A stretch of DNA of 64,000 nt. Origin: Photorhabdus asymbiotica (lineage in GTDB: Bacteria; Pseudomonadota; Gammaproteobacteria; Enterobacterales; Enterobacteriaceae). Position 1 is the first letter of the stretch, and every line of letters begins with the position of its first letter. Both the position numbers and the translations under genes were made by a program. The notes below the pieces were generated by a model. The model made no database searches and had not been told where the DNA came from. It saw only the letters and a list, made by a program, of their open reading frames with translations. The stretch lies in contig NZ_RBLJ01000004.1 in assembly GCF_003634575.1 (NCBI RefSeq), positions 806,001 through 870,000 of the forward strand, read 5' to 3'. Positions 27,333 to 62,627 of this stretch are shown here, piece after piece.

Positions 27333-27335
27333 ATT

Positions 27336-35764: not shown

Positions 35765-36570
35765 TATGCGAACTCCTGTAAATAGACATATTGTATAAAT
35801 TGTGTAACGTGACGAATAAAGCTCTGAGGATCTTGAGTAATATAAAAATGGTCGCCGGTAACTTCCTGGCAACAATAAGAAAGGTTTTGCGTGTTACCTG
35901 CAAGCCAATGATGCCATTGCTGAACTTCCATAGCAGAAGCTTCTTTGTCTTCGTTGCCATAAAGCAATAGCGTTGGTGTTTGCAGTTTTACTGAATCAGG
36001 TTGAATAACATGGTGATAGTGCTCTGTAGCAAAAAAATCAGCACGTAGCATTGGTAAGAACAATGCAAGCAATCCTGGATCTTCTCGTAACATCGGGCTG
36101 CAACCGCCGATATCAATCAATTGCTCAATGAATTCATGATCAGGCAGTCCGCTCAGTTGGCGGCGAGGTTGAAGATGGGGGGCATGACACCCCGAAAGTA
36201 CCAGTGCCTTGAGGGAACAGTTATGTTGTTCAAGGCGTTGGCAAGTTTCAAAAGCAACCTGAGCTCCCATGCTATGACCAACTAATATCAGGTTTTCTCT
36301 CTGTGCAGGAGTGAATGATACGATCAGATCGGCAAGTGATTGTGCTAATGGCTCAATCCGGGTGGTCGCGCGTTCATTCATACGGCTGTCATGTCCGGGG
36401 TAAATCACCAGTGAAGCCGCTATATCTGAATTTTCTAATGTGGACCATTGGCGGAATGCACTGGAACTGCCCCCAGCAAAGGGGCAGATTAGCAATGTGT
36501 ATTTGGGCTTGCCGTGAGTCGTCAGGCATGGGCGAATCATCGGGTGTGTAGGAAGTACCCACGTCATCAC
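35764..36570 (-). CDS. ybtT: Type II thioesterase (YbtT-like)
   Basis: The 268-residue alpha/beta hydrolase has the nucleophile motif GHSMGAQVAFE near residue 100, the early segment LLICPFAGGSSSAFRQW and a histidine in TGDHFYI near the C-terminus, the usual type II (proofreading) thioesterase pattern. It removes mis-primed acyl groups from carrier proteins of the assembly line. Translation may begin at GTG 36570, which overlaps the ybtU stop, or the ATG immediately after it. Gene order irp1-ybtU-ybtT-ybtE is the same as in the Yersinia high-pathogenicity island. Confidence 0.9.
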   Translation of the reverse strand: MMTWVLPTHPMIRPCLTTHGKPKYTLLICPFAGGSSSAFRQWSTLENSDIAASLVIYPGHDSRMNERATTRIEPLAQSLADLIVSFTPAQRENLILVGHSMGAQVAFETCQRLEQHNCSLKALVLSGCHAPHLQPRRQLSGLPDHEFIEQLIDIGGCSPMLREDPGLLALFLPMLRADFFATEHYHHVIQPDSVKLQTPTLLLYGNEDKEASAMEVQQWHHWLAGNTQNLSYCCQEVTGDHFYITQDPQSFIRHVTQFIQYVYLQEFA

Positions 36571-37664
36571 TATTTTTCCTTAGTTAGCATCAATTGAGCT
36601 GGATCAATCCAGACTGGAGGCGATAAATCCTGGGTAACAGGCTCTCCCATAATGCGTAAAATTTGTTGCCATAAGTCTGCCAGCCGTAGTTGGTAGTCGT
36701 AGGCAAAAGCAGTAGGGCGGAGAGCGCCAGTTAATACAGAACTTAAGGTATTGAGTAGAAATGCCACACCTTCAGCACCATCACATTCAAATGCTGTCAT
36801 CCAGTTTTTGGTTGCCGGACAAAGAATTTGTGATGTTGTCTGGTGCAAATAAGCCCCATCTGGCTGACTGGCGTTTAGGTAAAGGCTTTGCTCATTATTT
36901 AGATGATTTGGTGCATGAAGAACCGGTGTCCAGATAACCGGCCCATAACTGGCTTCCTGCGTAAGATAACCGGCAGGCCAAATCAGCGTCATTTTATGCA
37001 TAACCAGGTTATGCATGTCTGGATCTCTGGGGTCCAGATAAGATTGAACGTTTAACGTTATCGTTGTATCCGCAAAGCTGAGTTCAAAGCAATGAAATGC
37101 ATTGCTCCGTTGACCGACATAAACTATCTCCATGTGTTCCGGGCAATGACATGCCTGTAATAACAGGTCAAGTGCGGAAAATAGTAACTGACGGCTGGTT
37201 GTCAGGTAGCCACTTACCGGACGTTGCTGTGATAATTGGTTGATTTGTTGTGCCGCATGTAACCAGCTTCTACCAGCATGGCATTGGCTGTAAAAGCTAT
37301 TTACCCAAAACATAGCATCATGTTTGTTAGCTGTTGATTGGTGTCTTTTGATGGCTTCTGCATCAAGCGGGTGTTCCTGAATGACAGAAATACCCCGCGC
37401 CAATAATGCCTGAGTTAATTGGTCGCCTTTGCCACCAATAATCTCTGCACGGATGACCACACAGGCAATATCGATGTCGTCTGGCAGTTCATCCAATGAG
37501 TGAAATAGTGGCACGTTGAAATCACGAGCAAGTTGTTGCGAACGCGTACTTCCTTGCGCCAGAATCCCAGCCAGTTCCAGACCTGGCCGAGGTTGTAGAA
37601 ACGCATTAAGGTACAGTTCGCCAAATTTTGAACCGACAATCAGAACCCGCCGTGGCTTTATCAT
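36570..37664 (-). CDS. ybtU: Thiazolinyl imide reductase (YbtU/Irp3)
   Basis: The 364-residue protein has an N-terminal nucleotide-binding fold (RRVLIVGSKFGELYLNAFL) and the GFO/IDH/MocA-like layout with VIQEHPLD near residue 110, where the family has its conserved E-x-P. In yersiniabactin synthesis the NADPH-dependent enzyme reduces the second thiazoline to a thiazolidine while bound to HMWP2. The start overlaps the irp1 stop by four bases (ATGA). Its presence predicts that the product of this locus also contains a thiazolidine ring. Confidence 0.9.
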   Translation of the reverse strand: MIKPRRVLIVGSKFGELYLNAFLQPRPGLELAGILAQGSTRSQQLARDFNVPLFHSLDELPDDIDIACVVIRAEIIGGKGDQLTQALLARGISVIQEHPLDAEAIKRHQSTANKHDAMFWVNSFYSQCHAGRSWLHAAQQINQLSQQRPVSGYLTTSRQLLFSALDLLLQACHCPEHMEIVYVGQRSNAFHCFELSFADTTITLNVQSYLDPRDPDMHNLVMHKMTLIWPAGYLTQEASYGPVIWTPVLHAPNHLNNEQSLYLNASQPDGAYLHQTTSQILCPATKNWMTAFECDGAEGVAFLLNTLSSVLTGALRPTAFAYDYQLRLADLWQQILRIMGEPVTQDLSPPVWIDPAQLMLTKEK

Positions 37665-40600
37665 ATGTTCTCCTTAACAGGCTCAATAGTTGGGACTGAA
37701 TTCAGGATGTCTTTCAGACAACTAACCAGAGAGCCGACATGTTTGTGTTGGAATAGACTGTAATGATCACCATCAAGTGGTGTCACATTAACTGGCCCGA
37801 AAGTCTGCCAGCCAAGATCCCTTGAAGTGATTGTGGTTGGATCAAGGTAATCCATAAAATCAGGCAATGCTTGTACTGCCCGGATAAGACAGAAAGGCTG
37901 CGAAGTCCGCGGTGGACAGTAATCAAGCAATGCACTCAGATTGTGGCGCCATACCGAGTAAAGTGCAGTCAGCGAGCTGTCAATCTGTGCCGATTGTGGT
38001 AAGGCTTCGTGCAGCGCCTGAAGGAATGTCTCAGTATTAGCCGCGATAACACGGTTATCCAGCACCAAACCGGGGAATTGTCCCTGTAAATCGAGCAGGA
38101 AATGACGATGACAGAATGCATCATCCAGAGTCAGATCAGTGCGCACGTTTGGCGCAAAACTATCAATCAGGATGCAATGAGAAACGCTTTCACCCGCCGC
38201 GCGTAACTGATGTGCCATTTCATAGGCCACGAGTCCACCGAAAGACCAGCCGGCCAGTGTATAAGGTCCTTTAGGCTGGAAGCTACGGATTTGATTGATA
38301 TAGTCAGCAGCCAGCGCAGCAACGGAAGGCTTATCGGTATTTAAGCTATCTGGCGCAAATGCCAATCCAATCATACGTTGGGTGCTGAAATTAGCTGCCA
38401 AATGGCGATACCCCAGTAGATGTCCACCAATAGGATGTACGATAAATAAGGCTGGTTGCTCAACATTTCCTTTGTTCAGTATCACACTCTGGCAAGCGTT
38501 TTCCGGTTGATGTTCAATAAATTCAGCCAATGAATGTACGGTATCGTAAGTTTGTAACAGGCTGAGTGGATATTGACGATTGAACGTCTGGTTGATTTTC
38601 ACCATTAGCCTCACTGCCGCAAGAGAATCTCCGCCAAGAGTAAAGAAACTCTCGTGCACGTTGATACCTTGTTGCTCTAATACCGATTCCCAAAGGCTTA
38701 ATACCGCTTGTCCTGTCGCGTTGAGGGTCACCGCCGATGGCGTTGAGTTAACTTCTTGCGCTGTTTCAATCAGAGTAACCAGTGTACGTCTGTCGATTTT
38801 ACCGTTGTCTGATACAGGTATCGTATCAAGCGTGATAAATCGCTGTGGACACATCCAAACCGGCAAGGTTTGCTGCAACCAGTGAGGCAGTACCGGTAAA
38901 AGTTCTGTAGATACGGGGGCGTTGTCAGTTAAACGTAAGCCCGCGACGAGTTGCAATGCGCCGGTTGATGTGGTGTGTGCAAACACTAATGCTTGTTGTA
39001 TCTCAGGGTGCTCACATAAACGGTGCTCAATTTCGCCCAGCTCAATTCGATAACCACGAATTTTAATCTGGTGATCATTGCGTCCCAGAAATTCGATATT
39101 ACCGTCTGGCCGCCAGCGTCCTAAGTCACCGGTGCGGTAAAGTCGCTCACCGGTTTGAGGATGAGTGATAAATGCGTGTTCAGTTTTTTCTGAATCGGCC
39201 CAATAACCCAGCGCCAGCCCTTGTCCGCCAATATAAAGCTCACCGGTTACCCAGACCGGACAAGGTGAAAGTGCTGAATTAAGTACATAGAAGGTCTGAT
39301 TAGCCAAAGGCTTACCATAGGGAATGCTACGCCAGTTGGGATCAATGTGTGCGATAGGATAGGCGATAGACCATATTGATGCTTCGGTAGCACCTCCCAA
39401 ACTGAGAAGATTTAGCTCAGGGTGGAGAGCATATAATTTTGCTGGCAAATGGGTTGGTATCCAGTCACCACTCATCAATATCCAGCGCAGACTATCCAGA
39501 GAATGTGGGTAGCTTCGGGCATATTCTTCAAGCAGTTGTACAAATGCCGGAACAGAGTTCCAAACTGTGACCGATTCTTGCTGTAACCATGTCAATAATT
39601 TGTCAGGTTGACGGCTGTCACCAGGAGAAGGAATAACCAATTTTGCCCCACAGCTCAAAGTACCGAATAGATCATAAACTGAGAGGTCAAATGTTAATTC
39701 TGATATTGCCAGTACGCTATCGTGTTCATTGAGTGCAATGCGTTGGTTAATATCAAGGATGGTGTTGACCGCGCCCTGATGATCTATCATCACGCCTTTT
39801 GGTTTTCCGGTAGAGCCGGAGGTGAAGATGACATAAGCTAAATCCTCAGGGCGTGCGGATAAACTCTGCACACCGGGATTGACAGGTAAGCGGTTAAGTA
39901 ATGTTTCATCCAGAGAGATGACTTGCACATTGTCAGGCCAGCTCATCTGTTGAGCAAATTTAGGTTGAGTCAGTACGGTATCGACTTCTCCTGAGGCTAA
40001 TAGCTGATGGATGCGCTGTTGCGGATAACTAGCATCAATAGGCAGATAAGCCCGTCCTGCTAATAAAATCGCAATAACCGCGACAACTTGTTCCCAGCCT
40101 TTTTCCATTACTACACCAATCAGAGATGAAGTCTGATTTTCCTGCGCTTGCAGATGAGCCGCCAGTGTCAGGCTTTGTGACCACAAAGTGCGATAGTCTA
40201 ACTGACGAGAGGTATCGACAACAGCAGTGTGTTGTGGATAACGATTTACTGCCTGTTCAAGTAATGAGCAAAGTGTATGAGGCGGAAAAACGTTTTTCGT
40301 CGCATTACTGTTCTGACATAAAGTGCGATCACTGGCCGGGAGCCAGTCAGGAAGTGGGGCGTTCCATGGGTAATCTGGTTCGAGCAGTGCAACGATACTG
40401 GCTTGATAATGGGCAAACATGTTTTCTGCAACTTGTGGTTGGAACAGTTGCGGCAAAATTGCCCATTGTAGGGTGACACCACCGTCTGCGCTGGAAATTA
40501 GCATACAGTCAAGATAAACATGGGGTGTTTGCGCACCAAAAAGATTCAGCATTCCTAACCCTGATGGCCCTTTGCCCGCCGTACCGGTGGTATCGTTGAA

Positions 40601-43600
40601 TACGATTGGCATTCCAGCATTCAGGTTGTGGCGATGCTGATTTTTCTCTCTGAGTACCAATTGCCCGTCAAACAGCGCATGTTGCAGATCGGCTAACCAC
40701 TGTCTTTGTATCCGGCTTACTGCATCACCGAAGCCTGTAATATTGCGTAAATCCACTTCTAATAATGATGTGGTAGACAGATTGCCGACTAATGTATCGC
40801 AATGCTGTGGCATTAACAGGCGGTTGCCATGCAGGACATTAATAGTGAAATGTTCGCTGTTACTCCATACTGACAGAATATGGGCAAATAATGTGAGCAT
40901 AACTTGTGAAGGTGATACCCGGTGTTCTGCCGCACGTTGTTGCAAACGTTGCCACTGTTGTGGACTGATATATCCTGTTAGGCACTGTTGATCGAGTTGT
41001 TGTGACTGATGATCTTTCAGTGGTAACACTGGTGCATCAGGAAGTGAAGGTAAGCGATCAAGCCAGTATTGCCGGCTTTGTTGCCAGGCTTCTCCGGTTT
41101 TCTCATTCTCCAGTGCTTGAATATAGTCACCGATAGTCGCCACTGGCGGCTCTGGCTGCCAGTTAGGCTCCTGATACCAATGGTGTAAATCACGCAAGAT
41201 TAACGTTAGACTTTTACCATCAGCTACCAGCAGGTCGATGGTCAAATGCAATAGGTGTGTCCGATCATCAGTATGGTAGAGCGTTAAGTCAAACAGCGGC
41301 CAGTTGTCGCTGGGAACCCCTTGAGTACGCAGTGTGTCACGGGCATCATCCAACTGGGTCTCGCGCTCATTTGGCATCATGTTACGGCAATCAATGACCG
41401 TCGGTGTATAGCAGGGAATGTCCGGCAGAATATGATATTGCCCATCTTTCACATAACCGCGTAATTGCCCATGATGGTTTATCACACGGTTCCAGGCGGT
41501 GGTGAAACGAGGTAGATCAAGTCCGTTGATAGCCAGTTCAGCGTAGAAGTGGGCGATACCGTTACCAAATTGGAACAGTTGACTTTCTCCTAACCAATAA
41601 GCGTATTGCAATGCGGTGAGTGGCAGAGTCTGTTCTGATGCGGGTTCTTTAGCCTGATCGGGTGTAGCACGCGGAGCTGAATTTGTCTCAACTACCCGCA
41701 GGGTACGGCAAAATTCATTCAATTTAGGATGTTCGAATAGCTGTTGCAGATTAGCCTGTTCGTACCCTTGGCGGCGTAGTTGCACCACCATTCTGGTCGC
41801 AATTAAGCTATCACCACCACTTTGGAAAAAGTCACTTTGGCGTTTTATTGGCTGAGGAAGCAGTGAACTCCAGAGCGCAATCACTTGCTGTTCAATATCA
41901 TGGAGTTGTTCATCTTCTGTTTCCGGTTGCCCAGTTTCCGTGGTTAACGTTTGTACCATGCTCTCTTTCGTTGTCACTGGCAGCGGCAATTGTTCTTGCT
42001 GTTGAATATGCAATGAGTAAGGCAAGGTAGAAAATTGTGCTGCTATTTCACGGACATTAAGCCGCGCTTGCTGTTCAGTCCGCGCCAGAATCAGTTGTTG
42101 ATGCAGTTCAGGTCCGTCTTGTCCCGGCCATTCCAATGAAACCCGATAACCAGACTTCTCCAGACATTGACGCCAGTCAGCAAGTTCCAGCAATGCACTG
42201 TCACCGCGATCGTCGGTCCAGGCGTTAATACCTTCAATAAATCCAACACTGGCGAGTTGCATAGCACTTTCACGCTTGGTTGATTCAATGATCAGCAACC
42301 ATCCGCCGGGTTTCAGTAACCGAGACAGACGTTGCAGGGTATTTTTCAGGTGGACTGCATCATGTAATACGTTAACCGCCATAATCAGGTCATAACCCGA
42401 TTCAGGATGCTGACTAAAATCAATACGTTGGTTAATGTCGAACAGGGCAAATTTTACAGTTTCGCCATAGTGATTGAGTAACTGGCGTGCATCATCCAGA
42501 AATAGCGGTGAAACATCAGTAAAGTGGTAATTTTCAATGACTTGTGCATTGTGCGCCAGTACTTTCGCTGAGGTTGCCCCAGTTCCTGCACCGACTTCCA
42601 GTACTGTGAAATGTTCGGATGTTTGGCTCAATTGGCGGACAATTTCAGCGGCAGTTTGGTTCAGGCAACGTAACGCCGGGTTCTCACTGTAGAGGCTGGC
42701 TGTGGTTTGTTTATCGGCAAACAGCAATTCCAATGCATTGCCTTTTCCGGCAAGCAGGGTGTCATGTTGTCCGATACAAGTTGCTACATAACGACTGATA
42801 GTTTGGCACCATACTGCATCATCCAGTTTTGTTGTAGGAGCAGGAATATGACTAAGCGGTTGCAAACAACGGTATCCGTCAGCGGTTTTTTCAATAAATC
42901 CTTGCTTGTTTAATAACGTCAGCCATTGGGTAAGCAGGCGTTGATACTGTGGCGCCAGTTGTAAACGTTGTTCAATCTCTTCACGAGAGTGGCTTTGTTG
43001 TGGAGAAGTGAATAGGTTATGGCGTAGTAAAGTCTGGCCCAGACCCAATAATGCTTGTTGTTCAATGTGTTGCCAGGAACGTTCAAACGCTTGTTGCTCT
43101 GTTAACGCAGGCAACGGTAACACATCGGTGTTGATAACCCGTGGTTCTGGCAGTGATAATGACAAATTATCTTCTGCAACCAGCCATAAATTATAACCTT
43201 GTGTTTCGTCCTGACGTGGCTGAATTTCTGCCAACCGTATTTCAGGCTTAGCACGTAGATTTTGTTCAGCCTGACGCAATTCAGGATGTTGTGGCCAGAA
43301 GTCATAACGCAGGTGACCAGAAGGTGGTGTGCGAAGATCATAATGCTCTATGCGTTCAGGCTGGCGGCAAATTTGCACTAATAGCGCATTGTAAGCAGCA
43401 AACAGCGCTTCAATGACACCTGGCTCTAACACATCATCCATGCAATACCAGTTAAATAGCAGATCACCATCGACTTCCATAACTTGATGATCCAGCCAGA
43501 CTTGTGGCGTTTGGCTCAGAACAAACACCGGGTCACCGAGTAATTGCGTGATAGATTGTTTGATGGCGACACCTTCTTGTGCCATCCCCAACATACTAGT

Positions 43601-46600
43601 GAAAACCACTGGTGTTAGTGGTTGTCTGCTTTGAGCTTCGCCATTTTGTTGGCGACCGAGTTCCCGCAATACTTCAACACCATTGACATGATTGTGGCTC
43701 AGCCGTTGCCAGAGCAAGGCTTGGGTTTTTTCCATGCTGACACGTAGGGAGGTTGTCTTGCGTAAATCGAAATCCATCAACATGACTGAGGTAAAATCAC
43801 CAATCAGATCTTGCACCTCTGGATGGAAAGGCTGTCGGTTAAAGAAGGTCAGGTTGAGGGTAAACAACGGATGACGGCTGTACCATTCAAGAGTATGAGC
43901 AAATAGTGTCAGCAGGCCAGCAGAAGGCGTCACGCCCCATTTTTTCCAGCTTTGTTTAAGTCTCTGCCAGTCAGATTCAACCAATCGACCTTCATAAGTC
44001 GTAAATTGTGGCTGACCACGCTGAGGCAGTTGTGGGTTCAACGGTAATCTTGGCGCAGGGGGCAGTGAAAGTAATTGTTCCTGCCAGTATGCCCATGACG
44101 CCCGCCACTCTTTACTTTCACGTTGCGCTTGTTCTGCCATCACATAGTCGCGGAAAGTAAATGCTTGTGGAGCTAGTGGTTGCTGGCGATAAGCAAGTTG
44201 TAGATCATCCATCATGATCCGGAAACTCTGTACGTCAAACTGCAACAGGTCCAGGTTCATATGTAAGCGACAACGTTCATTTGGTAGCAACGAAATAGAG
44301 ACTTCAAACAGTGGCCACTGTTCCGCAGGTGGTACGTGATAGGAAAGGGTATGACGACGCTGAGCCAAAGCTTGTTCGCAGGCTGTATCGTCTAGCGTTC
44401 GCAAGTCATCCTGTGATAAAGCATACCAAGGCGTTTCAGGCAGAATTCTTTGTTGTCCATCTTCATCCACTACCATGCGTAACATGCCATGACGCTGAAT
44501 TAAAGCATTCCATGCCTTCTCGAAACGCGGGATATCAAAACTATCCAGTGCCAGATCCCATTCAAATAAGACATGGCAAGCTACACCACCAAAATCAATG
44601 GCCTGAGTACGACCAATCCAGTAAGCATGTTGAATTGGCGTCAGAGGGAATGGTGCATGACGCTGGGAATTGTCAATCATGATTTCAGGTTGAACAGAGA
44701 CGATTGGCTGTTCAGGCAATGCGTCGCCAATTAGTGCATTGAGTCCCGCCAGCGTCATGTTCTGATAAGCCAATCCAGCGGTTAATCTAAAGCCAAATTG
44801 CTGGTGGATGACTGCATTCAGCTCCAGGAACAACAGGGAATCCAAACCGAATTGCAATAAATCCTGTTGCGGTGCTAAATGTTCAGGCTGTTCTAATCGC
44901 AATAATGTTGCGACACGTTGGCGCAACCAATTGAGCCGTTCTTCTTTATCCTGATACAACGTATTATCGGCAGAGTGCGAAAGGGTAGGCGTTGTCGTTG
45001 TAATACCAGCCTGTAAACGGCGCAAAATATCGGGATGATGTTCATCTAATCGCATTGCCAGATAGCAAGGAGATGCAGTACGCAGAGATTGATTAAAATG
45101 CCAGATACCTTCATTTATGCTGAATGGTAACATGCCATCTTGCGCCAGTTTTTCTACTAATCGCCGGTCGCGGGCCATACCAATACCACCCCAAACGCCC
45201 CAAACTAACGTTTTCACTATCAATTGATTTGGTGCTGTCAGTGCTAAAGATTCCAAACAAGCATTGGCGATTGCATAAGCACCTTGTCCCTGAGCGCCTA
45301 ACATTGATGCAGCAGAAGCGTGAAGCAGTAGATATTGGGCGTTATGTTGCACAAGCGCCGTTTGCAACGTTGATGCACTTTGGGCTTTTACAGATAACAT
45401 CTGTGACAGTCGTGGGGGCTCAAGTTCTGCCAGCCGGGTATGATCAGCCACACCTGCGGCATGAATCACACCAGCAATACGATCTTCTTGTGCCAGCGTT
45501 TGTATTGCTTTTAATAGGGCTGACGTATCAGTGACATCAACGTTAATCCAACGTATTTCACATTCAGTACTCAGTGACAACTCTTGTACAAAAGCAGCCC
45601 AGTCCGCATTTTGGCGGCGGGCAAACACGGCAATCTTACGCGCGCCTTGTGCCAGTAACCAACGGATGGAAATCTGACCGATACCGCCCATACCACCGGT
45701 AACAATGTGCCAACCCTCACGAGGAATCGACATCGGCTGTTGCGATAATGGTAATGGTTGACGTTGTAAAACCGGTACAGAGATTTGATTCCCACGGACT
45801 TTCAGCCAGCGCTGGTGTTCATGATTGTGTTTATTCAAATAGCCAAGTGCCAATGACAAAGAGTCTGCATCGTTGATATCAGCAATATCAATCGCCTGAA
45901 TATGACGATGGGGATATTCTTCAACTGCGACACGCAGCAATGCCCAAACAGCATATTGAGCCGGATTGATATCTTCTTTTGATAAGGTGGTTTCCGGCTG
46001 AGCGCAGCAGGTTATAACGGTTAACGGTGCTGTTTCGTCACATTTTAATGCGCTAATAACCTGATCACATAATTTAACAACATCATGGCCTTCAAGCAGT
46101 AATAACGTATTTCCGCTTTCAGGCTGTAAATTAATCCCCGCCTGACGCCAATGATGAATCATCTCATCATTGGCAGTTGAAGAACGGAGGGTATACGCCG
46201 TTGAAGATCTTGGTTTATCCGCGGTATTGATTGTACGCCAATGCAGGACATAGTGAGTCTCAGGGCATGGCTGTGGCACCGGAAGCCATGATTTGGTCAT
46301 AGCGTGTTTTGTCATAGATCGTGCTGCTACAGTTTGGCGCGGAAGATCGGCACGATCACTTAACAGCGCGAATAAGCGTTCGCCAGCATAGATCAAGGCA
46401 GGGAAAGCAGCGAGTAAACGGGCTTCCAGTGACCGGCGTTTGGCATAGGGTAAGGCGCTATCAGGGCGATACATTTTACTTGCCGTTGGCCCGGAAGCTT
46501 CCCGGTAATAACCTTGCTGGACACAGTAAGTCAATAACTGTTCCAGCAGAGGGTGCCAGCAAGGTTGTAGGCGACCTGCTCGAATAGTGTCGATGGCACT

Positions 46601-49414
46601 AAAACCTTGTTCAGCATCTCGCCCATGACATTGATAAACCAATGCATCGGTATACAGCGCTCGTAGGATAGTGGCATCAGAGTTTTGCTCAATGGCAGGG
46701 TCGAGCAGGAAATTGACATCAAGCCCGGTATTGACATTGGCTGAGTGCGGCACAGACTTAGCCGCAGGGAAGCTGTAATGCTGCTCATCAAATGGATAGA
46801 GTGGAGCATGGCATTTTACTCCGGTGATCGGGAAAAGGTGCTGCCAATCGAGATGTACACCGGCACAGTAAAGTTGCATGAGGGCCGTTTGCTGAGCGGT
46901 TTCTGGGGAGCTTTGACGCTGTGCACCAGCAATCCAAGTTTCTTGTGGCAGACGGAAACGTCGCCCAATCCCGGTTAACTGTGCATCAGCCCCAAACTCA
47001 ACGAATAATGCAACACCTTGCTGGCGGGCAAATTCAACTGCCTGATAATAGCGTACAGTTTGACGCATATGATTACGCCAGTAGTCTGGTGAGCCTAGTT
47101 GCTCAGAAGTTGCAATATTCGCGGTCAGGGTAGAAATCAGCGGAATTTCTCCCAATGTAGGCTGTAAGCCGTTACAGCGCTGGGAAAATGTATCCAGAAC
47201 TGAATCAAGCATGGCTGAATGTGCTGCACAGGCAACGTTAAGACGCTGGCAGTGAATCTGCTGTTGCTCCAGACGTTGTGCCAGAATATCAATTTCTGCC
47301 TCTGTACCAGCCCAAACCCAGTGTTGCGGGCCATTGCAAACCGCCAGATCCAATGCCAGTGAATGGGTAAAGGGAAGAATATCTTCTTCGTTGGCGAAGA
47401 TTGCCAGCATCGCTCCCCCCTGGGAGCATTTTTGCATCAGTTTGCCCCGTACCGCGACTAACGGCATCACTTGTTCAGGCGTGAAAATCCCGGCAACCAC
47501 GGCTGCGGCAAATTCTCCGACGGAGTGCCCCAGTACGTAATCAGGCTTTAATCCAAGTGCTTGCCAATGTGCTGCCAATGCAATTTGATGTGCCACAATG
47601 GCGGGTTGTGCGTATTCGGTGGTGGCTAATGCCGCATCATGCTCTCCGAACATCACGGCTTTTAATGGCAATGCCAATTCGGATGTACAGGCAGCACAGC
47701 AACGATCCAACATAGCGGCGAAAACCGGAGAGCTGGCATACATGGCTTCTCCCATACCAGGCCATTGACAACCCTGCCCGCTGAATTGCCAAAGCTGCTT
47801 GCTTTCGCTATTAACTTGCCCGCTGAAAATATTTGGTGTTGGGCTATTGTTTGCAAAGGGGGTATTTGCAAAGGCAGATAAGCTCTCGGCACTTTGTGGT
47901 GTCAAGGTCAGTGCTAAACGCCAAGGGAGTGAAAGGTCGCGTCCTTGCAAAGCGGTCCAGGCCAGATCTGCATGATGCTCTGGTGCATCATGGAGTGCCG
48001 TCGCGTAACGTTGTGCTAATTGTCGCAATGAGGATTCAGAAGCAGCAGAGAGTAGTAACGGCGAAGCTTGTGGATTATGGGCACGGCGACGATGTAATTC
48101 TTCTGGCAATGATTGCACCACAATATGACAGTTAGTACCGCCAATACCGAATGAAGAGACGCCTGCGGTACGCAATTTTTGCGTCCAGCGCTGTCCTTGT
48201 GTTGCTAGTTTGAACGGACTTTGTTCCAGCCGTAATGCCGGATTAGGTTGCTCCACATTGATAGTTGGCGGAATGTAACCATGCCAGACAGACAAAACCG
48301 CTTTAATCAAGCTGGCAATACCTGCGGCAGTATCAAGATGGCCTATGTTGCTTTTCACTGAGCCAAGGTAGCAGGGTGGTACTGCCACACTACGCTCAGC
48401 GAATATGTTGCGTAACGCGTCAACTTCGATGGGATCGCCAAGTGGTGTTCCTGTACCGTGCGCTTCAATCATGCCGACATCATCAATACTGACATCTGCC
48501 AGTTGTAATGCTTCGGTAATAACGCTGAGCTGACCATTAACCGAAGGTGCAGTGAAGCCGACTTTTTCGTTGCCATCGTTATTAATTGCACTGCCACGCA
48601 ATACCGCCATGATGGGATCGCCATCGCGTAAAGCATCACTCAGACGTTTCAGCGTGACAACACCAACACCATTGCCGCCGTAGGTGCCATTTGCCTGACT
48701 ATCAAAGGGGCGACAATGTCCATCAGGCGAGAAGATCATCCCGGGTTGATACAAATAACCGCTTTCTTGTGGGAAAGAAACTGCCACACCACCAGCCAGT
48801 GCCATGTCACACTCACCGGCGCGTAGGTTCTCACAAGCCATATGCACGGCAACCAGTGAACTTGAGCACGCGGTTTGTACCGTGAGTGCAGGACCTTTCA
48901 GGTTTAATTTATAGGCCGTACGCGTCGCAAGATAATCTTTGTCGTTACTGATTAGCGCCTGAAGTCCTTTAACTTTGCCGACATCGGTCATCGTGAATTG
49001 TGACCATGAAGGCCAGGTGCTAACCCGGCTACTACCGAAAACGCCTGTTTTCAGGTGTACATTACGCGGTGCATAACCCGCATGTTCAAGAGCGTGCCAG
49101 GCGGTTTGCAGGAATAGGCGCTGTTGAGGATCGAGCATCTCTGCTTCCTGACGTGAATAGCCAAACAGGGTAGCGTCAAATTGTTCCGCATTCTCCAGTA
49201 TCGCTGCCTGACTGACAAAGTTTTCACTATCAATGACTTCAGGAGGAATACCTGCATCTAATAATGTTTGACGGGAGAGTGTGGCAGTACACTCAACCCC
49301 ATGTTGCAGGTTATGCCAGAACGCATTGCTATCTGATGCCTGCGGAAAGCGGCAGGCAAGGCCAATCACTGCGATGGGATCACAATTATCGTAGTGAGGC
49401 GTTAAATCTGTCAT
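37661..49414 (-). CDS. irp1: Hybrid PKS-NRPS, HMWP1 (Irp1) homologue with extra Cy-A-PCP module
   Basis: The 3917-residue enzyme is about 750 residues longer than Yersinia HMWP1 (about 3160, recalled). Domains by eye: KS (active Cys183 in QTACSSSL), AT (Ser631 in GHSVGEF), a methyltransferase-like remnant about 880-1010 without a SAM-binding G-x-G-x-G, KR (TGGMGGIGQ near 1238), ACP (Ser1526), Cy1 (from 1585, DLLQFDVQS near 1721), C-MT (LEVGAGTGATS near 2273), PCP (Ser2536), Cy2 (from 2597, DLLVADGKS), A (FTSGSTGKPKG near 3195), PCP (Ser3597) and TE (Ser3724 in GWSFGGL). Yersinia HMWP1 has KS-AT-MT-KR-ACP-Cy-MT-PCP-TE. The A-domain residues read by eye (D-L-Y-N-M-S-L-I-W) match the cysteine code. 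It should add malonate without the gem-dimethyl group, then a methylated cysteine ring and one more cysteine before release. Confidence 0.92.
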   Translation of the reverse strand: MTDLTPHYDNCDPIAVIGLACRFPQASDSNAFWHNLQHGVECTATLSRQTLLDAGIPPEVIDSENFVSQAAILENAEQFDATLFGYSRQEAEMLDPQQRLFLQTAWHALEHAGYAPRNVHLKTGVFGSSRVSTWPSWSQFTMTDVGKVKGLQALISNDKDYLATRTAYKLNLKGPALTVQTACSSSLVAVHMACENLRAGECDMALAGGVAVSFPQESGYLYQPGMIFSPDGHCRPFDSQANGTYGGNGVGVVTLKRLSDALRDGDPIMAVLRGSAINNDGNEKVGFTAPSVNGQLSVITEALQLADVSIDDVGMIEAHGTGTPLGDPIEVDALRNIFAERSVAVPPCYLGSVKSNIGHLDTAAGIASLIKAVLSVWHGYIPPTINVEQPNPALRLEQSPFKLATQGQRWTQKLRTAGVSSFGIGGTNCHIVVQSLPEELHRRRAHNPQASPLLLSAASESSLRQLAQRYATALHDAPEHHADLAWTALQGRDLSLPWRLALTLTPQSAESLSAFANTPFANNSPTPNIFSGQVNSESKQLWQFSGQGCQWPGMGEAMYASSPVFAAMLDRCCAACTSELALPLKAVMFGEHDAALATTEYAQPAIVAHQIALAAHWQALGLKPDYVLGHSVGEFAAAVVAGIFTPEQVMPLVAVRGKLMQKCSQGGAMLAIFANEEDILPFTHSLALDLAVCNGPQHWVWAGTEAEIDILAQRLEQQQIHCQRLNVACAAHSAMLDSVLDTFSQRCNGLQPTLGEIPLISTLTANIATSEQLGSPDYWRNHMRQTVRYYQAVEFARQQGVALFVEFGADAQLTGIGRRFRLPQETWIAGAQRQSSPETAQQTALMQLYCAGVHLDWQHLFPITGVKCHAPLYPFDEQHYSFPAAKSVPHSANVNTGLDVNFLLDPAIEQNSDATILRALYTDALVYQCHGRDAEQGFSAIDTIRAGRLQPCWHPLLEQLLTYCVQQGYYREASGPTASKMYRPDSALPYAKRRSLEARLLAAFPALIYAGERLFALLSDRADLPRQTVAARSMTKHAMTKSWLPVPQPCPETHYVLHWRTINTADKPRSSTAYTLRSSTANDEMIHHWRQAGINLQPESGNTLLLLEGHDVVKLCDQVISALKCDETAPLTVITCCAQPETTLSKEDINPAQYAVWALLRVAVEEYPHRHIQAIDIADINDADSLSLALGYLNKHNHEHQRWLKVRGNQISVPVLQRQPLPLSQQPMSIPREGWHIVTGGMGGIGQISIRWLLAQGARKIAVFARRQNADWAAFVQELSLSTECEIRWINVDVTDTSALLKAIQTLAQEDRIAGVIHAAGVADHTRLAELEPPRLSQMLSVKAQSASTLQTALVQHNAQYLLLHASAASMLGAQGQGAYAIANACLESLALTAPNQLIVKTLVWGVWGGIGMARDRRLVEKLAQDGMLPFSINEGIWHFNQSLRTASPCYLAMRLDEHHPDILRRLQAGITTTTPTLSHSADNTLYQDKEERLNWLRQRVATLLRLEQPEHLAPQQDLLQFGLDSLLFLELNAVIHQQFGFRLTAGLAYQNMTLAGLNALIGDALPEQPIVSVQPEIMIDNSQRHAPFPLTPIQHAYWIGRTQAIDFGGVACHVLFEWDLALDSFDIPRFEKAWNALIQRHGMLRMVVDEDGQQRILPETPWYALSQDDLRTLDDTACEQALAQRRHTLSYHVPPAEQWPLFEVSISLLPNERCRLHMNLDLLQFDVQSFRIMMDDLQLAYRQQPLAPQAFTFRDYVMAEQAQRESKEWRASWAYWQEQLLSLPPAPRLPLNPQLPQRGQPQFTTYEGRLVESDWQRLKQSWKKWGVTPSAGLLTLFAHTLEWYSRHPLFTLNLTFFNRQPFHPEVQDLIGDFTSVMLMDFDLRKTTSLRVSMEKTQALLWQRLSHNHVNGVEVLRELGRQQNGEAQSRQPLTPVVFTSMLGMAQEGVAIKQSITQLLGDPVFVLSQTPQVWLDHQVMEVDGDLLFNWYCMDDVLEPGVIEALFAAYNALLVQICRQPERIEHYDLRTPPSGHLRYDFWPQHPELRQAEQNLRAKPEIRLAEIQPRQDETQGYNLWLVAEDNLSLSLPEPRVINTDVLPLPALTEQQAFERSWQHIEQQALLGLGQTLLRHNLFTSPQQSHSREEIEQRLQLAPQYQRLLTQWLTLLNKQGFIEKTADGYRCLQPLSHIPAPTTKLDDAVWCQTISRYVATCIGQHDTLLAGKGNALELLFADKQTTASLYSENPALRCLNQTAAEIVRQLSQTSEHFTVLEVGAGTGATSAKVLAHNAQVIENYHFTDVSPLFLDDARQLLNHYGETVKFALFDINQRIDFSQHPESGYDLIMAVNVLHDAVHLKNTLQRLSRLLKPGGWLLIIESTKRESAMQLASVGFIEGINAWTDDRGDSALLELADWRQCLEKSGYRVSLEWPGQDGPELHQQLILARTEQQARLNVREIAAQFSTLPYSLHIQQQEQLPLPVTTKESMVQTLTTETGQPETEDEQLHDIEQQVIALWSSLLPQPIKRQSDFFQSGGDSLIATRMVVQLRRQGYEQANLQQLFEHPKLNEFCRTLRVVETNSAPRATPDQAKEPASEQTLPLTALQYAYWLGESQLFQFGNGIAHFYAELAINGLDLPRFTTAWNRVINHHGQLRGYVKDGQYHILPDIPCYTPTVIDCRNMMPNERETQLDDARDTLRTQGVPSDNWPLFDLTLYHTDDRTHLLHLTIDLLVADGKSLTLILRDLHHWYQEPNWQPEPPVATIGDYIQALENEKTGEAWQQSRQYWLDRLPSLPDAPVLPLKDHQSQQLDQQCLTGYISPQQWQRLQQRAAEHRVSPSQVMLTLFAHILSVWSNSEHFTINVLHGNRLLMPQHCDTLVGNLSTTSLLEVDLRNITGFGDAVSRIQRQWLADLQHALFDGQLVLREKNQHRHNLNAGMPIVFNDTTGTAGKGPSGLGMLNLFGAQTPHVYLDCMLISSADGGVTLQWAILPQLFQPQVAENMFAHYQASIVALLEPDYPWNAPLPDWLPASDRTLCQNSNATKNVFPPHTLCSLLEQAVNRYPQHTAVVDTSRQLDYRTLWSQSLTLAAHLQAQENQTSSLIGVVMEKGWEQVVAVIAILLAGRAYLPIDASYPQQRIHQLLASGEVDTVLTQPKFAQQMSWPDNVQVISLDETLLNRLPVNPGVQSLSARPEDLAYVIFTSGSTGKPKGVMIDHQGAVNTILDINQRIALNEHDSVLAISELTFDLSVYDLFGTLSCGAKLVIPSPGDSRQPDKLLTWLQQESVTVWNSVPAFVQLLEEYARSYPHSLDSLRWILMSGDWIPTHLPAKLYALHPELNLLSLGGATEASIWSIAYPIAHIDPNWRSIPYGKPLANQTFYVLNSALSPCPVWVTGELYIGGQGLALGYWADSEKTEHAFITHPQTGERLYRTGDLGRWRPDGNIEFLGRNDHQIKIRGYRIELGEIEHRLCEHPEIQQALVFAHTTSTGALQLVAGLRLTDNAPVSTELLPVLPHWLQQTLPVWMCPQRFITLDTIPVSDNGKIDRRTLVTLIETAQEVNSTPSAVTLNATGQAVLSLWESVLEQQGINVHESFFTLGGDSLAAVRLMVKINQTFNRQYPLSLLQTYDTVHSLAEFIEHQPENACQSVILNKGNVEQPALFIVHPIGGHLLGYRHLAANFSTQRMIGLAFAPDSLNTDKPSVAALAADYINQIRSFQPKGPYTLAGWSFGGLVAYEMAHQLRAAGESVSHCILIDSFAPNVRTDLTLDDAFCHRHFLLDLQGQFPGLVLDNRVIAANTETFLQALHEALPQSAQIDSSLTALYSVWRHNLSALLDYCPPRTSQPFCLIRAVQALPDFMDYLDPTTITSRDLGWQTFGPVNVTPLDGDHYSLFQHKHVGSLVSCLKDILNSVPTIEPVKENI

Positions 49415-52400
49415 TGTGCAGCTCCTTTATGACGTTTTTCCCGTTGTTGCAGACGCTTTTGTTGTTGGCGCTGACGAGGGGTAATCGACTGGCGATTTCC
49501 GTCGTGGGCATCCTTTCGGCAGCGCAAGCTGAGCGTCTCTGGTGTTGGATAAGCGAATAAATCAGTAACGGCAAGATGATGGAAACCCGCATGTTGTAAT
49601 TTGCTATGCAGTTGAATTAACTGTAGCGAGTTGGCTCCTGCCTCAAAAAAGTTTTGTTGTGCATTAATAGGATGATTTGTTACCGATAAAAACAGGCGTT
49701 GAATTTCATTGCATATTTGTGGATCGAGTCCTTCCGAACGTGGTGATGACGCAATAACAACAGCGGCGTTATCTCCAACTATGGTGCATTGCTGGCGTGG
49801 CATCAGTTGTTCCAATGCTGAATGCCAGCTTTCTGGTTGTGCAGCAAGGGTACGCAAGAGTGCCATATAGCTATTGAACATGTTTTGTAACTGATGCGGT
49901 TCAAATAACTCTTCGACAGCATCCCAGTTTAGGCAAAGCTCATTGTCAGATTCGTAAACCTGATGATCCAACCAGATTTGTGGCGTTTGTGAGATACCCC
50001 AAACCGGTTTCATCCATGATGAACGTGAAAGGAATCGTCCTTCATGTGTTCCCAATGCACTGGTGAAAACGACTGGCATAATAGCTGCATCGGGACCACG
50101 GCTCTGTGCCAGTTCACGCATCACTCTGATAGCTGAAATATGGCGGTGATCCAGATCCTGCCATAATTGTTGTTGCAGTCGTCGGGCGCTTAATAACCAA
50201 TTTTTCTCTGGATGCCAGGCCAGTAATGACAGTGAAGTGAAATCACCCAGAATGTGATTAATGTCCTCATGCCAATGCGGACGATCGAAAAGGGTAAGAT
50301 TAAGGGTTAACTCCGGTCTGGCGCTGAATGCGGACAAAACAGCCGCATAAGCCGCAATTAAGAGCGCCGAAGGGGTTATCTGATGGGAGGCAGCATGTTG
50401 CTTTAACTGATTCCATTCATGTGCAGATAACCGATCGCTGTAGCGCACAAAACGCGGAGATTGAACATCTTCCGGTGCAATACGTAATGGTAATTGCGGG
50501 GCCAGTGGTAATGTTTTCACTTGCTCCTGCCAATATTGCAGTGAGTTCTGATGTGCCGGCGTTTGTTGCTGGCGTAACACACAATCCCGGAATGTGACTT
50601 TCAGTGGCGGCAATTCGTACTGTTCGTTGAGATATAGCTGTTCTAATTCAGCCAGCAATATCTGCATGCTCAACCCGTCCAATAGCAAATTATCCAGGCT
50701 GACAAATAATCGGGAGACAAGGCTGTTGTCTTGAGCAAGTTGGAAATCGAACACCGGCCAGTGACTGGCGTCTAATACCTGATGTGACAGACGTTCGCGT
50801 AGTGTGTCTGCCTGCGTAATATCCGTGAATTGGTGTTGTTTAACGGAGAACATCGGGACATCTTTCAATACCTGCTGCTGTCCATTAATCACAATAGTTC
50901 TAAGCACAGGATGGCGCTGGATCAGGCGATTTAATACCCGGTTCAGTCGTTGAACATCTAACTGTTCTAGCCGGTATTCGATAAAGAAATGAGCACCAAC
51001 ACCACTGAGGGCAAAACCGGGATGGCGTCCAACCAAATAAGCTTGCTGAACTTCGGTTAATGGGAAAGGCTGATATTCATCTTGCTCTTTTGGTATTGAA
51101 TAGGTTTCTGATGCAGTTTCAGACAGAGGCGCCAGTGTAGCAGCAAACTCTGCCAATTGCGGGTTACGGAAAAGATGTCCAAGTTCGCCTTTGAAGCCTT
51201 GTTGTGTCAATTCACCAATCAGACGTGTAGCCAGAAGACTATCACCGCCAAGTTGGAAAAAGTCACTATGACGGCCTAATTGCTCTGTATTTAGCAGGCG
51301 TTGCCAGAGGTTGGCAACGGTTTGTTCTACCGGATTCAACGAGGTCATTTCATTCTGGTGTGACACGTCTGTTTTTGTCGTGGATTGCAGGGCTTGTGAC
51401 AGCACCTTCCGATCAATTTTGCCGTTAGGTGTCAGAGGCAGACGCGGAATAACATGTAAACGCTGTGGGATCATATATCCCGGCAAATGTTGCGCCAATA
51501 CGGATTTAATTTTTTCCCGATCAGGAAGGGTGACGTTGTCACTTGCCTGCATCAACAACACACTAAGATTACCGATGGTAATGGGTGTTTCCGCCTGTAG
51601 TGGTAAAAGAGGCAACCACTGTGACGCAGAACGTAGCTGAATACCGTGAGGTGATAACAACTCAGTCGTAATCAGGGAGAGAGATGAGGCTTGTTGCAAC
51701 TCCATTGCCAACACCAGCGCACCGGGTTGTGCCAGAGGCATTAACGCTTTGATGCAATTTGCAGGATCTCCCTCGCGGTGTAAGACATTGTTTAGCAGGA
51801 TGATATCGGCCTGATGCTGTAGCGACTCTGGAATTTGTTCAAGCCAATGATGTACTGATGCGTGGGCATAACCGCTTAACCGTGTTTGCGCCTGATTGAT
51901 CAGGGCTTGGGAACGTTCAAACCCGAGGTAAGACAGATGTTGGTCAGTGATATGTTCTGCTAGCCACTGAGCACAGAGGCCGCTACGGGCGTCAAACTCC
52001 ATCAACGTAATAGGGCGTTGTAACCGTTGGGAAAGGGCAATGATTACCTGTTTTAGTCCTGCTAACCATTGCTGGGTTTCTGGTAGTACGAAGAGCTGCT
52101 GTTCTGGCGCGAATTGCGGATCATCAAGTAATGTAACTGCGGCCTGTTGCCCGGTAAGAATGCTACGTAGCATAGAGTGCCAGCGTTCTGGGATGCATCC
52201 TGCTTCATTATTGAATGTCGTGGCTGGCGATACGGCCTGATAGACATGATGTGTAGATTCAGCTAATAGCTTGCATTGACAAAGGTATGCCAGCATACGG
52301 CCAAACCAGTCATGATATTCCGGTTGAGGCTGATAGTGTTTCAGACAATCGGTGAGCGATTGAGGTGCAGTAAACGTCATACCGTGACGAGACAAATGTT

Positions 52401-59096: not shown

Positions 59097-60333
59097 TCAC
59101 GTTCTCCTTTTGGAAATCGCGGAACTTGTGAAATGTCCAGAACAGGCCAGTGAGGGTGAAAAATGATGCAAGAGCGAAAAGGGAAGCATAGCTTACTTTA
59201 GTGACAATCATTCCACCTAACACGGAACAGATGATCGCAATGCTCATATCTGCGGACTGCATCAACGCAAAATCCACACCAGACTGTGTGCCTGCCGCCA
59301 AAGACATCATTTGGGTATACAAGGCAACAAATTTAGCCGCGGTGATTAACGTGATGAAGACATATGCCGTTGAAAGTAGGGATAGCGGGGCTTCTGGTTG
59401 TTGGGCAAGCCAGAAAATACCCACTAATACCATGCATTCAAACAGCATCAGGCCTAACAATGTTTGAATGGAACCTAATTTACGTACAATGATACCGCCA
59501 AGTAAGACACCGGATAACCCAGCTAATGCACCACCACTGGCGGCAATGATGCCAAGTTGGGTTAAATCTACTCCGCGATCTATCAAGAACGGAGAGAGCA
59601 TGCCGAGTGAAAGGCGCGTACCAATCATACAGAGCAATATTAAAATTAGAGCCTGTTTAACTGGGGCACGACGCAATGCACTCTTTAATGAAGGTGTTAC
59701 CGCAGTCTTTGAAATATTCGATGCTTTCTTTTCCGGTGTTTCCTTGATAAATAAAACAGGCAGTGACATCACTAGAATCAATATGGCTAACACACCAGCA
59801 CCAATATGCCAGCCATACAGTGAGGTAAGATATAAAAACAGACCGCTGCCTATAATAGACCCCAGATAACTGCCTCCAACCTGCATGACATTGCTCCAGG
59901 GGCGATGCTGTGGGGATAACCGGTCAATAGCATGGCCGTCTGTAGTGGTGTCTACTACGGTCAGACAAAGGGTGATCAGAAACAGACCCGTGATAATCAG
60001 CGGCATATGCTCAGCAGGTTCTGCTAATGACATTGAACAAAAAAGCAGTGTAATTAACACATTACCGCAGAGCATGATGCGGCGAGAGTTGGTATCTCCC
60101 GAACCGGATTTACGATAGCGTTCTACAATGGGAGCCCAAAGGAATTTGAATGCCCAAGGTAACATCAACAGATAAAGTAGCCCTATCTTGTCCGGGGTAA
60201 CACCGTGGCTGCGCAGAAATGCTGGCATGCTTTGTAACGTTAACATACCGATGGTACTTTGGATGGTGTAAACACCAGCCAAAGCCAAAAGTAGCAACGA
60301 GACATGACGGGGGTGTGAGATATTGTGCATCAT
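59086..60333 (-). CDS. MFS transporter, RhtX/FptX/YbtX-like
   Basis: The 415-residue protein has about twelve transmembrane helices and the segment STIGMLTLQSMPAFLRSHGV followed by DKIGLLYLLMLPWAFKFLW, typical of the RhtX/FptX siderophore permeases related to AmpG. In rhizobactin and pyochelin systems single proteins of this type import the ferric siderophore; YbtX in Yersinia is encoded in the same kind of cluster, though its need for uptake is unclear. Two consecutive ATG codons (60333 and 60330) overlap the receptor stop. Symbol ybtX would be reasonable but orthology was not tested. Confidence 0.88.
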   Translation of the reverse strand: MMHNISHPRHVSLLLLALAGVYTIQSTIGMLTLQSMPAFLRSHGVTPDKIGLLYLLMLPWAFKFLWAPIVERYRKSGSGDTNSRRIMLCGNVLITLLFCSMSLAEPAEHMPLIITGLFLITLCLTVVDTTTDGHAIDRLSPQHRPWSNVMQVGGSYLGSIIGSGLFLYLTSLYGWHIGAGVLAILILVMSLPVLFIKETPEKKASNISKTAVTPSLKSALRRAPVKQALILILLCMIGTRLSLGMLSPFLIDRGVDLTQLGIIAASGGALAGLSGVLLGGIIVRKLGSIQTLLGLMLFECMVLVGIFWLAQQPEAPLSLLSTAYVFITLITAAKFVALYTQMMSLAAGTQSGVDFALMQSADMSIAIICSVLGGMIVTKVSYASLFALASFFTLTGLFWTFHKFRDFQKENVNAQ

Positions 60334-62492: not shown

Positions 62493-62627
62493 GATAAATT
62501 GCGTGATATTCACATTCCGTATATATATAAAATAAAAATATAATGTCTTTAATATGCACAATATACTGTTTTAGTGTGGAAAGCGCTTTTGAAATGGTGT
62601 CTGATGCTAATTTTACAGGGGGATCTC

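What the first reader, a model, noticed from the sequence alone, without database searches (positions are those of the whole stretch)
37661..49414. HMWP1 homologue with an additional cysteine module and a lost first methyltransferase
Seen: between PCP Ser2536 and the TE there is a complete extra Cy-A-PCP (DLLVADGKS, TSGSTGKPKG, Ser3597), and between AT and KR there is no SAM-binding motif although an N-terminal remnant of the region persists. Known: yersiniabactin HMWP1 has KS-AT-MT-KR-ACP-Cy-MT-PCP-TE and no A domain of its own. Inference: the product lacks the gem-dimethyl group and contains one more cysteine-derived unit. The length difference (about +750) fits gain of about 1030 and loss of about 250 residues. 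Piscibactin or photoxenobactin-type pathways are the closest known comparison I recall.
Basis: partly seen in the sequence, partly recalled or inferred. Interest (0 to 1): 0.75.

Follow-up and report, generated by a model that had tools for sequence, protein, structure and literature searches.

The report
Siderophore enzyme with non-closing extra module
This is a Photorhabdus copy of a published iron-scavenger assembly-line enzyme (PxbG); what its extra last step does has been unclear, and its sequence suggests that this step attaches a cysteine but can no longer close it into a ring, which fits the odd sulfur ends of the known products.

Summary
Minus-strand ORF 37661-49414 (3917 aa) is KS-AT-KR-ACP-Cy3-MT-T5-Cy4-A2-T6-TE. 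Between AT and KR only an N-terminal remnant of the first methyltransferase region is left. Against E. coli HMWP1 about 309 residues are lost there and a module of about 1060 is gained. It is not new: it is PxbG of the photoxenobactin/piscibactin cluster, whose missing cMT1 and extra Cy4-A2-T6 are published (PMC9396620, PMC9177418). The neighbours match, fused PxbJ included.

Possibly new: the extra Cy domain is not complete. Six residues tied to the Cy tunnel and ring closure are changed in 26 of 26 Cy4 domains and in 0 of 84 Cy1-3 domains, and in the piscibactin plasmid's Irp1. The condensation motif is kept, and dN/dS near 0.07 argues against decay. Best reading: Cy4 joins the chain to cysteine without closing a fourth thiazoline, and the open adduct is cleaved to sulfur-ended products. 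Main caution: PchE closes rings without the dyad Thr.

The parts
37661..49414 (-). PxbG (HMWP1/Irp1 homologue), 3917 aa, KS-AT-[MT1 remnant]-KR-ACP-Cy3-MT2-T5-Cy4-A2-T6-TE
46964..49381 (-). KS (residues 12-480) and AT (542-817) with KS TACSSS, EAHGTGT, NIGH and AT GHSVG
46358..46936 (-). N-terminal remnant of the lost first methyltransferase region (residues 827-1019; 34% identity to HMWP1 836-1038); no methyltransferase hit; median dN/dS 0.115 (measured on residues 860-1020)
45191..46288 (-). KR with its upstream part (residues 1043-1408; KR Pfam 1234-1408)
44717..44920 (-). ACP (residues 1499-1566, Ser1526)
43325..44665 (-). Cy3 (residues 1584-2030), the six ring-closure/tunnel residues all kept
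42140..42652 (-). MT2 (residues 2255-2425), SAM motif VLEVGAGTG at 2271
41705..41902 (-). PCP T5 (Ser2536; span 2505-2570 set by eye around the Ser)
40310..41638 (-). Cy4 (residues 2593-3035): keeps D2727, D2732, S2735, Y2606, N2859, T2963, D2969; has L2861, G2863, N2878, S2880, N2940, H2965, M2971 where HMWP2-Cy2 has T1753, F1755, D1770, T1772, T1830, Q1858, Q1864
38798..40261 (-). A2 adenylation domain (residues 3052-3539); pocket segments like those of the PxbF and HMWP2 A domains
38516..38710 (-). PCP T6 (residues 3569-3633, Ser3597)
37709..38452 (-). TE (residues 3655-3902), GWSFGG, Ser3724
49411..55506 (-). PxbF (HMWP2/Irp2 homologue), carrier-Cy1-A1(with MT-like insert)-PCP-Cy2-PCP; 49% identity to HMWP2
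36570..37664 (-). PxbH, thiazolinyl imide reductase (TIGR01761 over cut-off)
35764..36570 (-). PxbI, type II thioesterase (YbtT/Irp4-like)
32828..35875 (-). PxbJ, fused salicyl-AMP ligase and salicylate synthase (start codon uncertain; overlaps PxbI)
55559..57310 (-). ABC transporter (33% to its best match in the E. coli ybt locus)
57297..59096 (-). ABC transporter, second of the pair (37% to its best match in the E. coli ybt locus)
59086..60333 (-). MFS transporter (43% to an ORF of the Vibrio irp locus L047)
60330..62333 (-). TonB-dependent receptor (43% to an ORF of the Vibrio irp locus L047, 31% to FyuA)
62574..63614 (+). AraC-family regulator

Best explanation
The ORF is PxbG, the large polyketide/nonribosomal synthase of a photoxenobactin/piscibactin metallophore cluster. 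SHOWN by sequence: the first methyltransferase core is missing; MT2 is present; the extra Cy4-A2-T6 is an intact, constrained module; Cy4 keeps the condensation motif but lacks residues that other Cy domains use to close and dehydrate the ring. SHOWN by others in homologues: T6 or module 6 is needed for photoxenobactins C and D (X. szentirmaii) and E (V. anguillarum); four cysteine sulfurs enter photoxenobactin C; a product with a fourth thiazoline has not been reported in what I read. INFERRED: A2 loads cysteine on T6. Cy4 moves the methylated three-cysteine chain from T5 onto that cysteine and stops there. The open S-acyl (or N-acyl) cysteinyl-T6 adduct is then cut at the C-S bond, giving thiocarboxylate (photoxenobactin E) or, after oxidation, dithioperoxoate (photoxenobactin C). 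The T6 remnant is cleared by TE and the type II TE. Thioester formation by Cy4 and the C-S cleavage were proposed by PMC9396620; the added claim here is that the lack of ring closure is written into Cy4's sequence. In this reading the extra module donates sulfur rather than adding a ring.
For: Architecture. The five biosynthetic genes match those of X. szentirmaii pxb at 80-82% (domains). Nine of nine residues mutated in X. szentirmaii PxbG are the same residue here. T1753, F1755, D1770, T1772, T1830 and Q1858 (HMWP2 numbering; 21 of 21 published positions matched the E. coli sequence) are all changed in 26 of 26 Cy4 domains, and none is changed in 84 of 84 Cy1-3 domains. Of 43 positions invariant in those 84, Cy4 keeps 26 throughout, varies at 3 and has lost 14 throughout, while DxxxxD, Y1505, N1751, T1856 and D1862 are kept. 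Cy4 lacks both T1830 and Q1864. The same signature is in Irp1 of the piscibactin plasmid. Median dN/dS is 0.067 for Cy4, against 0.047 for Cy3 and 0.067 for A2. Papers: mutation of the Asp-Thr dyad, of the Gln and of the gating Phe hits cyclodehydration (PMC9547227, passages). PchE Q482A and T474A triple the linear product (PMC8807600, passages). Deleting module 6 abolishes photoxenobactin E in V. anguillarum (PMC12421891, passages).
Against: PchE has Ala at the dyad-Thr position (alignment) and still makes a thiazoline, with Q482 and T474 said to compensate, so loss of that Thr alone proves nothing. Cy4 keeps T1856, the PchE T474 equivalent, and the key Asp. PchE F372A retains 31.6% activity. 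Q1864 also varies in Cy1 domains, and one other sampled Cy domain of unknown product (L060) lacks both T1830 and Q1864. The six positions were picked after seeing the alignment, from those named in PMC9547227. Cy groups differ from one another in general: Cy3 has lost 12 of 64 positions invariant in Cy1 and Cy2. The authors of PMC9396620 also call Cy3 inefficient, yet Cy3 has all six residues, so residue content is not the whole story. Their Cy4 D2771A mutant only halved photoxenobactin C. No product was measured for this strain. The supplementary alignments of PMC9396620 were not seen, so the pattern may already have been noted there.
Confidence: 0.7

Rival explanations
1. Cy4 is an ordinary, fully ring-forming Cy domain; the cluster makes a four-thiazoline siderophore that is too unstable or too quickly cleaved to be seen, as first hypothesised for piscibactin (2012, cited in PMC9396620).
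For: DxxxxDxxS, Y1505 and the key Asp are kept. PchE shows that one missing dyad residue can be compensated. pxb products are unstable (PMC9396620).
Against: Six tunnel/dyad positions are changed in 26 of 26 Cy4 domains and in none of 84 Cy1-3 domains. The predicted four-ring product was not detected in P. damselae or V. anguillarum (PMC9408133, passages), and the X. szentirmaii authors assign Cy4 thioester formation only.
Confidence: 0.12
2. Module 6 is a decaying, non-functional leftover; the real product is piscibactin released from T5.
For: Piscibactin matches release from module 5, and PMC9408133 (passages) said that a non-functional module 6 could not be ruled out. Cy4 has lost residues.
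Against: Cy4, A2 and T6 are under purifying selection like the rest of the enzyme (median dN/dS 0.067, 0.067 and 0.045). T6 Ser, A2 Asp/Lys and the first Asp of the Cy4 motif are the same in 28 of 28 sequences, three of them identical X. hominickii copies. T6 inactivation in X. szentirmaii removed photoxenobactins C and D; deleting module 6 in V. anguillarum removed photoxenobactin E and cut piscibactin about a thousandfold.
Confidence: 0.05
3. Cy4 closes the ring but slowly, and the chain is cleaved first; the sequence changes tune rate or substrate (a C-methylated donor) rather than remove the reaction.
For: The published view is low heterocyclisation efficiency (PMC9396620). Some changed positions (T1753, F1755, R1509) lie at the donor or acceptor entrances described in PMC9547227, so donor fit could explain them.
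Against: The dyad Thr and helper Gln are both gone, which is more than tuning. No closed T6 product was mentioned in the papers I read.
Confidence: 0.13

Closest known systems
pxb cluster and PxbG of Xenorhabdus szentirmaii DSM 16338 (photoxenobactins; PMC9396620, PMC9177418)
   Same: Same domain order, same missing cMT1, same extra Cy4-A2-T6, same fused PxbJ; PxbG 80% identical; nine of nine mutated residues shared.
   Different: 69 residues shorter, counted from the start that fits the published numbering (4035 - 49 = 3986 aa there); no chemistry known for this strain.
irp cluster, Irp1 (piscibactin; Photobacterium damselae subsp. piscicida, Vibrio)
   Same: In the Vibrio homologue L047: no MT hit between AT and KR and an extra Cy-A-carrier module. 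Same Cy4 residue signature in L047 and in the P. damselae stretch.
   Different: 45-46% identity in Cy4; salicylate synthase and ligase are separate ORFs in L047; longer AT-KR interval (487 aa). Only module 6 of the P. damselae gene was fetched.
yersiniabactin HMWP1 (irp1, E. coli SCU-122)
   Same: KS-AT-KR-ACP-Cy-MT-PCP-TE backbone; 43% identity over one 1569-column stretch.
   Different: HMWP1 has a first MT between AT and KR, and no A domain or fourth Cy was found in it.
PchE, BmdB, EpoB and HMWP2 heterocyclisation domains (solved structures)
   Same: Cy4 is recognisably of this family by sequence (BmdB-Cy2 E = 6.1e-61) with DxxxxDxxS.
   Different: Those close rings; Cy4 lacks both the dyad Thr and the helper Gln, whereas BmdB keeps Thr, PchE keeps Gln, and EpoB and HMWP2-Cy2 keep both (read).

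Membership tests
pxb/irp (photoxenobactin/piscibactin) synthase | HMWP1-like enzyme without MT between AT and KR | tested here: met
pxb/irp (photoxenobactin/piscibactin) synthase | Extra Cy4-A2-T6 between T5 and TE | tested here: met
pxb/irp (photoxenobactin/piscibactin) synthase | pxbF-pxbJ neighbours, with bifunctional PxbJ in Xenorhabdus/Photorhabdus | tested here: met
pxb/irp (photoxenobactin/piscibactin) synthase | Residues shown by mutation to matter in X. szentirmaii PxbG | tested here: met
   9 of 9 identical
pxb/irp (photoxenobactin/piscibactin) synthase | Makes piscibactins/photoxenobactins | not testable with these tools
   no metabolite data for this strain
yersiniabactin synthase HMWP1 | First methyltransferase between AT and KR | tested here: not met
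yersiniabactin synthase HMWP1 | No adenylation domain of its own | tested here: not met
   AMP-binding 3052-3405
ring-forming Cy domain (for Cy4) | DxxxxDxxS motif | tested here: met
   residues 2727-2735
ring-forming Cy domain (for Cy4) | Asp-Thr dyad with helper Gln | tested here: not met
   Asp kept; Thr is Asn, Gln is Met. Working Cy domains can lack one of Thr or Gln (PchE, BmdB)
ring-forming Cy domain (for Cy4) | Forms a thiazoline | not testable with these tools
   no fourth ring reported for homologues in the passages read

The most novel reading that the evidence does not exclude
Cy4 of the pxb/irp enzymes is a dedicated non-cyclising, sulfur-transferring Cy domain: a distinct functional subtype fixed before the Vibrionaceae and Xenorhabdus/Photorhabdus clusters parted, whose job is to hang the chain on a cysteine so that its sulfur can be kept as a thiocarboxylate. 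In a small tree it falls on the side of other Cy domains that have lost some of the same residues (Nostoc and Streptomyces), so such domains may be more widespread.
Probability: 0.5. Interest if true: 0.65.

Novelty: already known. Interest (0 to 1): 0.42.

Why it matters
The useful addition is a sequence-level explanation for an open question in the piscibactin/photoxenobactin field: why the sixth module gives no fourth thiazoline and the products end in thiocarboxylate or dithioperoxoate. The residue signature makes that testable on a single excised module. If it holds, it would also give genome miners a way to tell Cy domains that close rings from those that probably do not, which would correct structure predictions for other clusters.

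Tried and rejected
Thiotetronate link: I considered that Cy4 might share ancestry with the Cy domain of thiolactomycin-type clusters, which also use cysteine sulfur. I read passages of PMC5518548. Its proposal uses a cysteine desulfurase, I held no thiotetronate sequence, and nothing tests the link; left as an idea. Sorangibactin (PMC10127202, passages) uses a TE route and is not parallel. Tandem Cy domains of the VibF kind, a precedent from recall for splitting condensation from cyclisation, were searched for but no paper was opened for them.

Recent duplication of Cy1-3 as the source of Cy4: not supported. Cy4 shares 27.5-32.1% identity with the window's own Cy1-3 and groups apart from them (97/97, 15 rows, one long branch).

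Relaxed selection on module 6 after natural loss of MT2: no clear signal. Cy4 in the P. caribbeanensis pairs is slightly raised (0.15 and 0.19), but one ordinary pair reaches 0.20 (10 chosen pairs).

Family-wide genome count: 5 of 99 sampled genomes had any match and only 2, the window's own included, a match at 86% or more, because few Photorhabdus/Xenorhabdus genomes were drawn; not used. The class-wide search supplied comparison Cy domains only. The 10 actinobacterial loci were left out of the PxbG comparisons, and gave no Cy domain.

Not run: structure prediction and fold search; metagenome and viral scans. Not seen: the supplement of PMC9396620 and part 4 of its text, and the BmdB and EpoB mutation papers (PMC5098645 is not held; both are known here only as cited).

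Literature check for the Cy4 residue pattern: paper searches, and passages. None of what I saw names these residue losses. This is no proof of absence.

Full report
WHERE IT IS. The window lies in a 5.10 Mb genome of eight contigs. Among 36 loci returned by the protein search, 26 are Xenorhabdus or Photorhabdus and 10 are distant actinobacterial synthases. The nearest is P. australis (94% over PxbG).

THE OBSERVATION. The minus-strand ORF 37661-49414 encodes 3917 residues. Pfam gives KS, AT, KR, three carrier domains, two Condensation-family domains, one methyltransferase, one adenylation domain and a thioesterase (25 of 27 families shown). E. coli HMWP1 (L046, strain SCU-122) gives two methyltransferase stretches and no adenylation domain among the 25 families shown of 26. 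Pairwise alignment shows what was lost: window 827-1019 pairs with HMWP1 836-1038 (34%), and 1043-1240 with 1370-1564 (30%), so the piece with the MT1 core is gone while its N-terminal part remains. The interval from AT to KR (columns of window residues 821-1233) is 413 residues here, 404-440 in the 26 Xenorhabdus/Photorhabdus loci, 487 in a Vibrio homologue, 637 in an E. coli element of another type (L045) and 722 in HMWP1. The remnant is constrained (median dN/dS 0.115, 24 comparisons).

WHAT IT IS. PMC9396620 (parts 1-3 of 4 of the text read) and PMC9177418 (passages) describe exactly this for PxbG: no cMT1 and an added Cy4-A2-T6, in a cluster with PxbF, PxbH, PxbI and a fused salicylate synthase/ligase PxbJ. 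All are here: PxbF 49411-55506, PxbH 36570-37664 (TIGR01761), PxbI 35764-36570 and PxbJ 32828-35875 with both AMP-binding and chorismate-binding domains. BLAST against the X. szentirmaii locus gives 80-82% identity for these five genes, PxbG included, and 76-87% for the transporters and receptor. All nine residues that were mutated in X. szentirmaii PxbG fall on the same residue here once numbering is aligned.

THE EXTRA CY DOMAIN. I aligned the Cy domains of PxbF and PxbG from the window, 26 Xenorhabdus/Photorhabdus loci, yersiniabactin (L046), the L045 element and a Vibrio irp cluster (L047). Numbering follows HMWP2; all 21 positions named in PMC9547227 that I checked agree with the E. coli sequence. 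After dropping two loci identical to a third (L022 and L026, identical to L017), there are 84 Cy1-3 domains and 26 Cy4 domains (24 loci, the window and L047). T1753, F1755, D1770, T1772, T1830 and Q1858 are unchanged in 84 of 84 and all changed in 26 of 26. I picked these six after seeing the alignment, from the positions named in the paper. F1755 is Gly in 22 and Ser in 4; T1830 is Asn in 25 and Ser in 1; R1509 becomes Glu in all 26. Q1864 is Met or Ile in every Cy4, but this position also varies in Cy1. Kept throughout are D1620, D1625, Y1505, N1751, T1856 and D1862; S1628 is kept in 25 of 26. As a control, treating Cy1, Cy2 or Cy3 in turn as the odd group gives 7 of 68, 6 of 63 and 12 of 64 otherwise invariant positions lost, against 14 of 43 for Cy4; none of the six is among the losses of those controls, though Q1864 is for Cy1. 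The piscibactin plasmid's Irp1 (L077) has the same signature (not in the counts above). In a wider sample of 27 Cy domains (9 from the clusters above, 18 others), only the two Cy4 domains have all six changes. Of the others, three have five, one has four, one has three, three have two and one has one. One (L060) also lacks both T1830 and Q1864.

WHAT THAT MEANS. PMC9547227 (passages) says that mutation of the Asp-Thr dyad and the nearby Gln severely affected cyclodehydration, as did mutation of the gating Phe. PMC8807600 (passages) reports that alanine at PchE Q482 or T474 cuts the ring product to 9.8% and 15.3% and triples the linear one. Cy4 lacks dyad Thr, helper Gln and gating Phe together. 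Against this, PchE itself has Ala at the dyad-Thr position and closes rings, F372A there keeps 31.6% activity, and Cy4 keeps the equivalents of PchE T474 and D480. The claim rests on the combination, on its association with one module across two bacterial orders, and on chemistry reported by others: four cysteine sulfurs enter photoxenobactin C and Cy4 is assigned thioester formation only, and deleting module 6 in V. anguillarum removes photoxenobactin E while piscibactin persists about a thousandfold lower. Purifying selection (Cy4 median dN/dS 0.067, range 0.053-0.115, 24 comparisons that all share the window and so are not independent) argues against decay.

ADENYLATION DOMAIN. A2 shares pocket segments (FDLSVYD, WNSVP, SGDW, GGATEA-IW) with A1 of PxbF and the HMWP2 A domain. 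I read these as a cysteine code by recall. Published mutants support A2 as the more specific loader of T5 and T6.

LITERATURE STATE. PMC9408133 and PMC10915793 (passages) described module 6 as possibly non-functional or the source of a cryptic product. PMC9396620 calls Cy4 the least efficient Cy domain. In the texts and passages I saw, no residue explanation is given; the supplement was not seen.

SIDE RESULT. Three Photorhabdus PxbG genes (L030, L032, L033) are intact ORFs of 3502-3534 aa that also lack MT2. Pfam finds no methyltransferase in L030 and L032 (L033 was not scanned). L030 keeps a 24-residue scrap and the other two do not, so at least two deletions are likely. In a search of 12 genomes of the genus (own included), 7 hold the whole MT2-T5 stretch at 87-100%, 2 hold only its carrier end in ORFs of 3524 and 3534 aa (the lengths of L032 and L033), and 3 hold nothing close. 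By the published MT mutant such enzymes should make only unmethylated early products.

Noticed in passing
L030:16021-26526, L032:15898-26469, L033:15898-26499: PxbG of P. heterorhabditis SF41, P. noenieputensis and P. caribbeanensis are intact ORFs lacking the second methyltransferase as well, apparently with two different deletion junctions.
   Followed up: partly
L017, L022, L026: Xenorhabdus hominickii DSM 17903 shows three loci on three contigs identical over all 34,594 bases fetched: either a large recent triplication of the pxb region or an assembly effect.
   Followed up: partly
window 10983-30057: Type VI secretion genes: VgrG (10983-13511), IcmF-like (20388-23753), a lipase-like ORF (13512-15125) and Tli4-type immunity genes (16259-17374, 28939-30057), apparently in two repeated sets judging by ORF sizes (the ORFs at 24807-27332 and 27336-28946 were not scanned).
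   Followed up: no
L045:9659-30357: E. coli strain 005008 carries, beside integrating conjugative element genes, a yersiniabactin-like cluster with no salicylate gene annotated in the stretch fetched.
   Followed up: no
   Followed up: partly
window 62574-63614: The AraC-family regulator beside the cluster had no match at 1e-10 to any ORF of 250 aa or more in L046 (which holds ybtA), L047, L024 or L009.
   Followed up: no
window 31334-32497: A cupin-family gene sits just downstream of pxbJ and is also present at 91% identity in the P. australis locus; role unknown.
   Followed up: no
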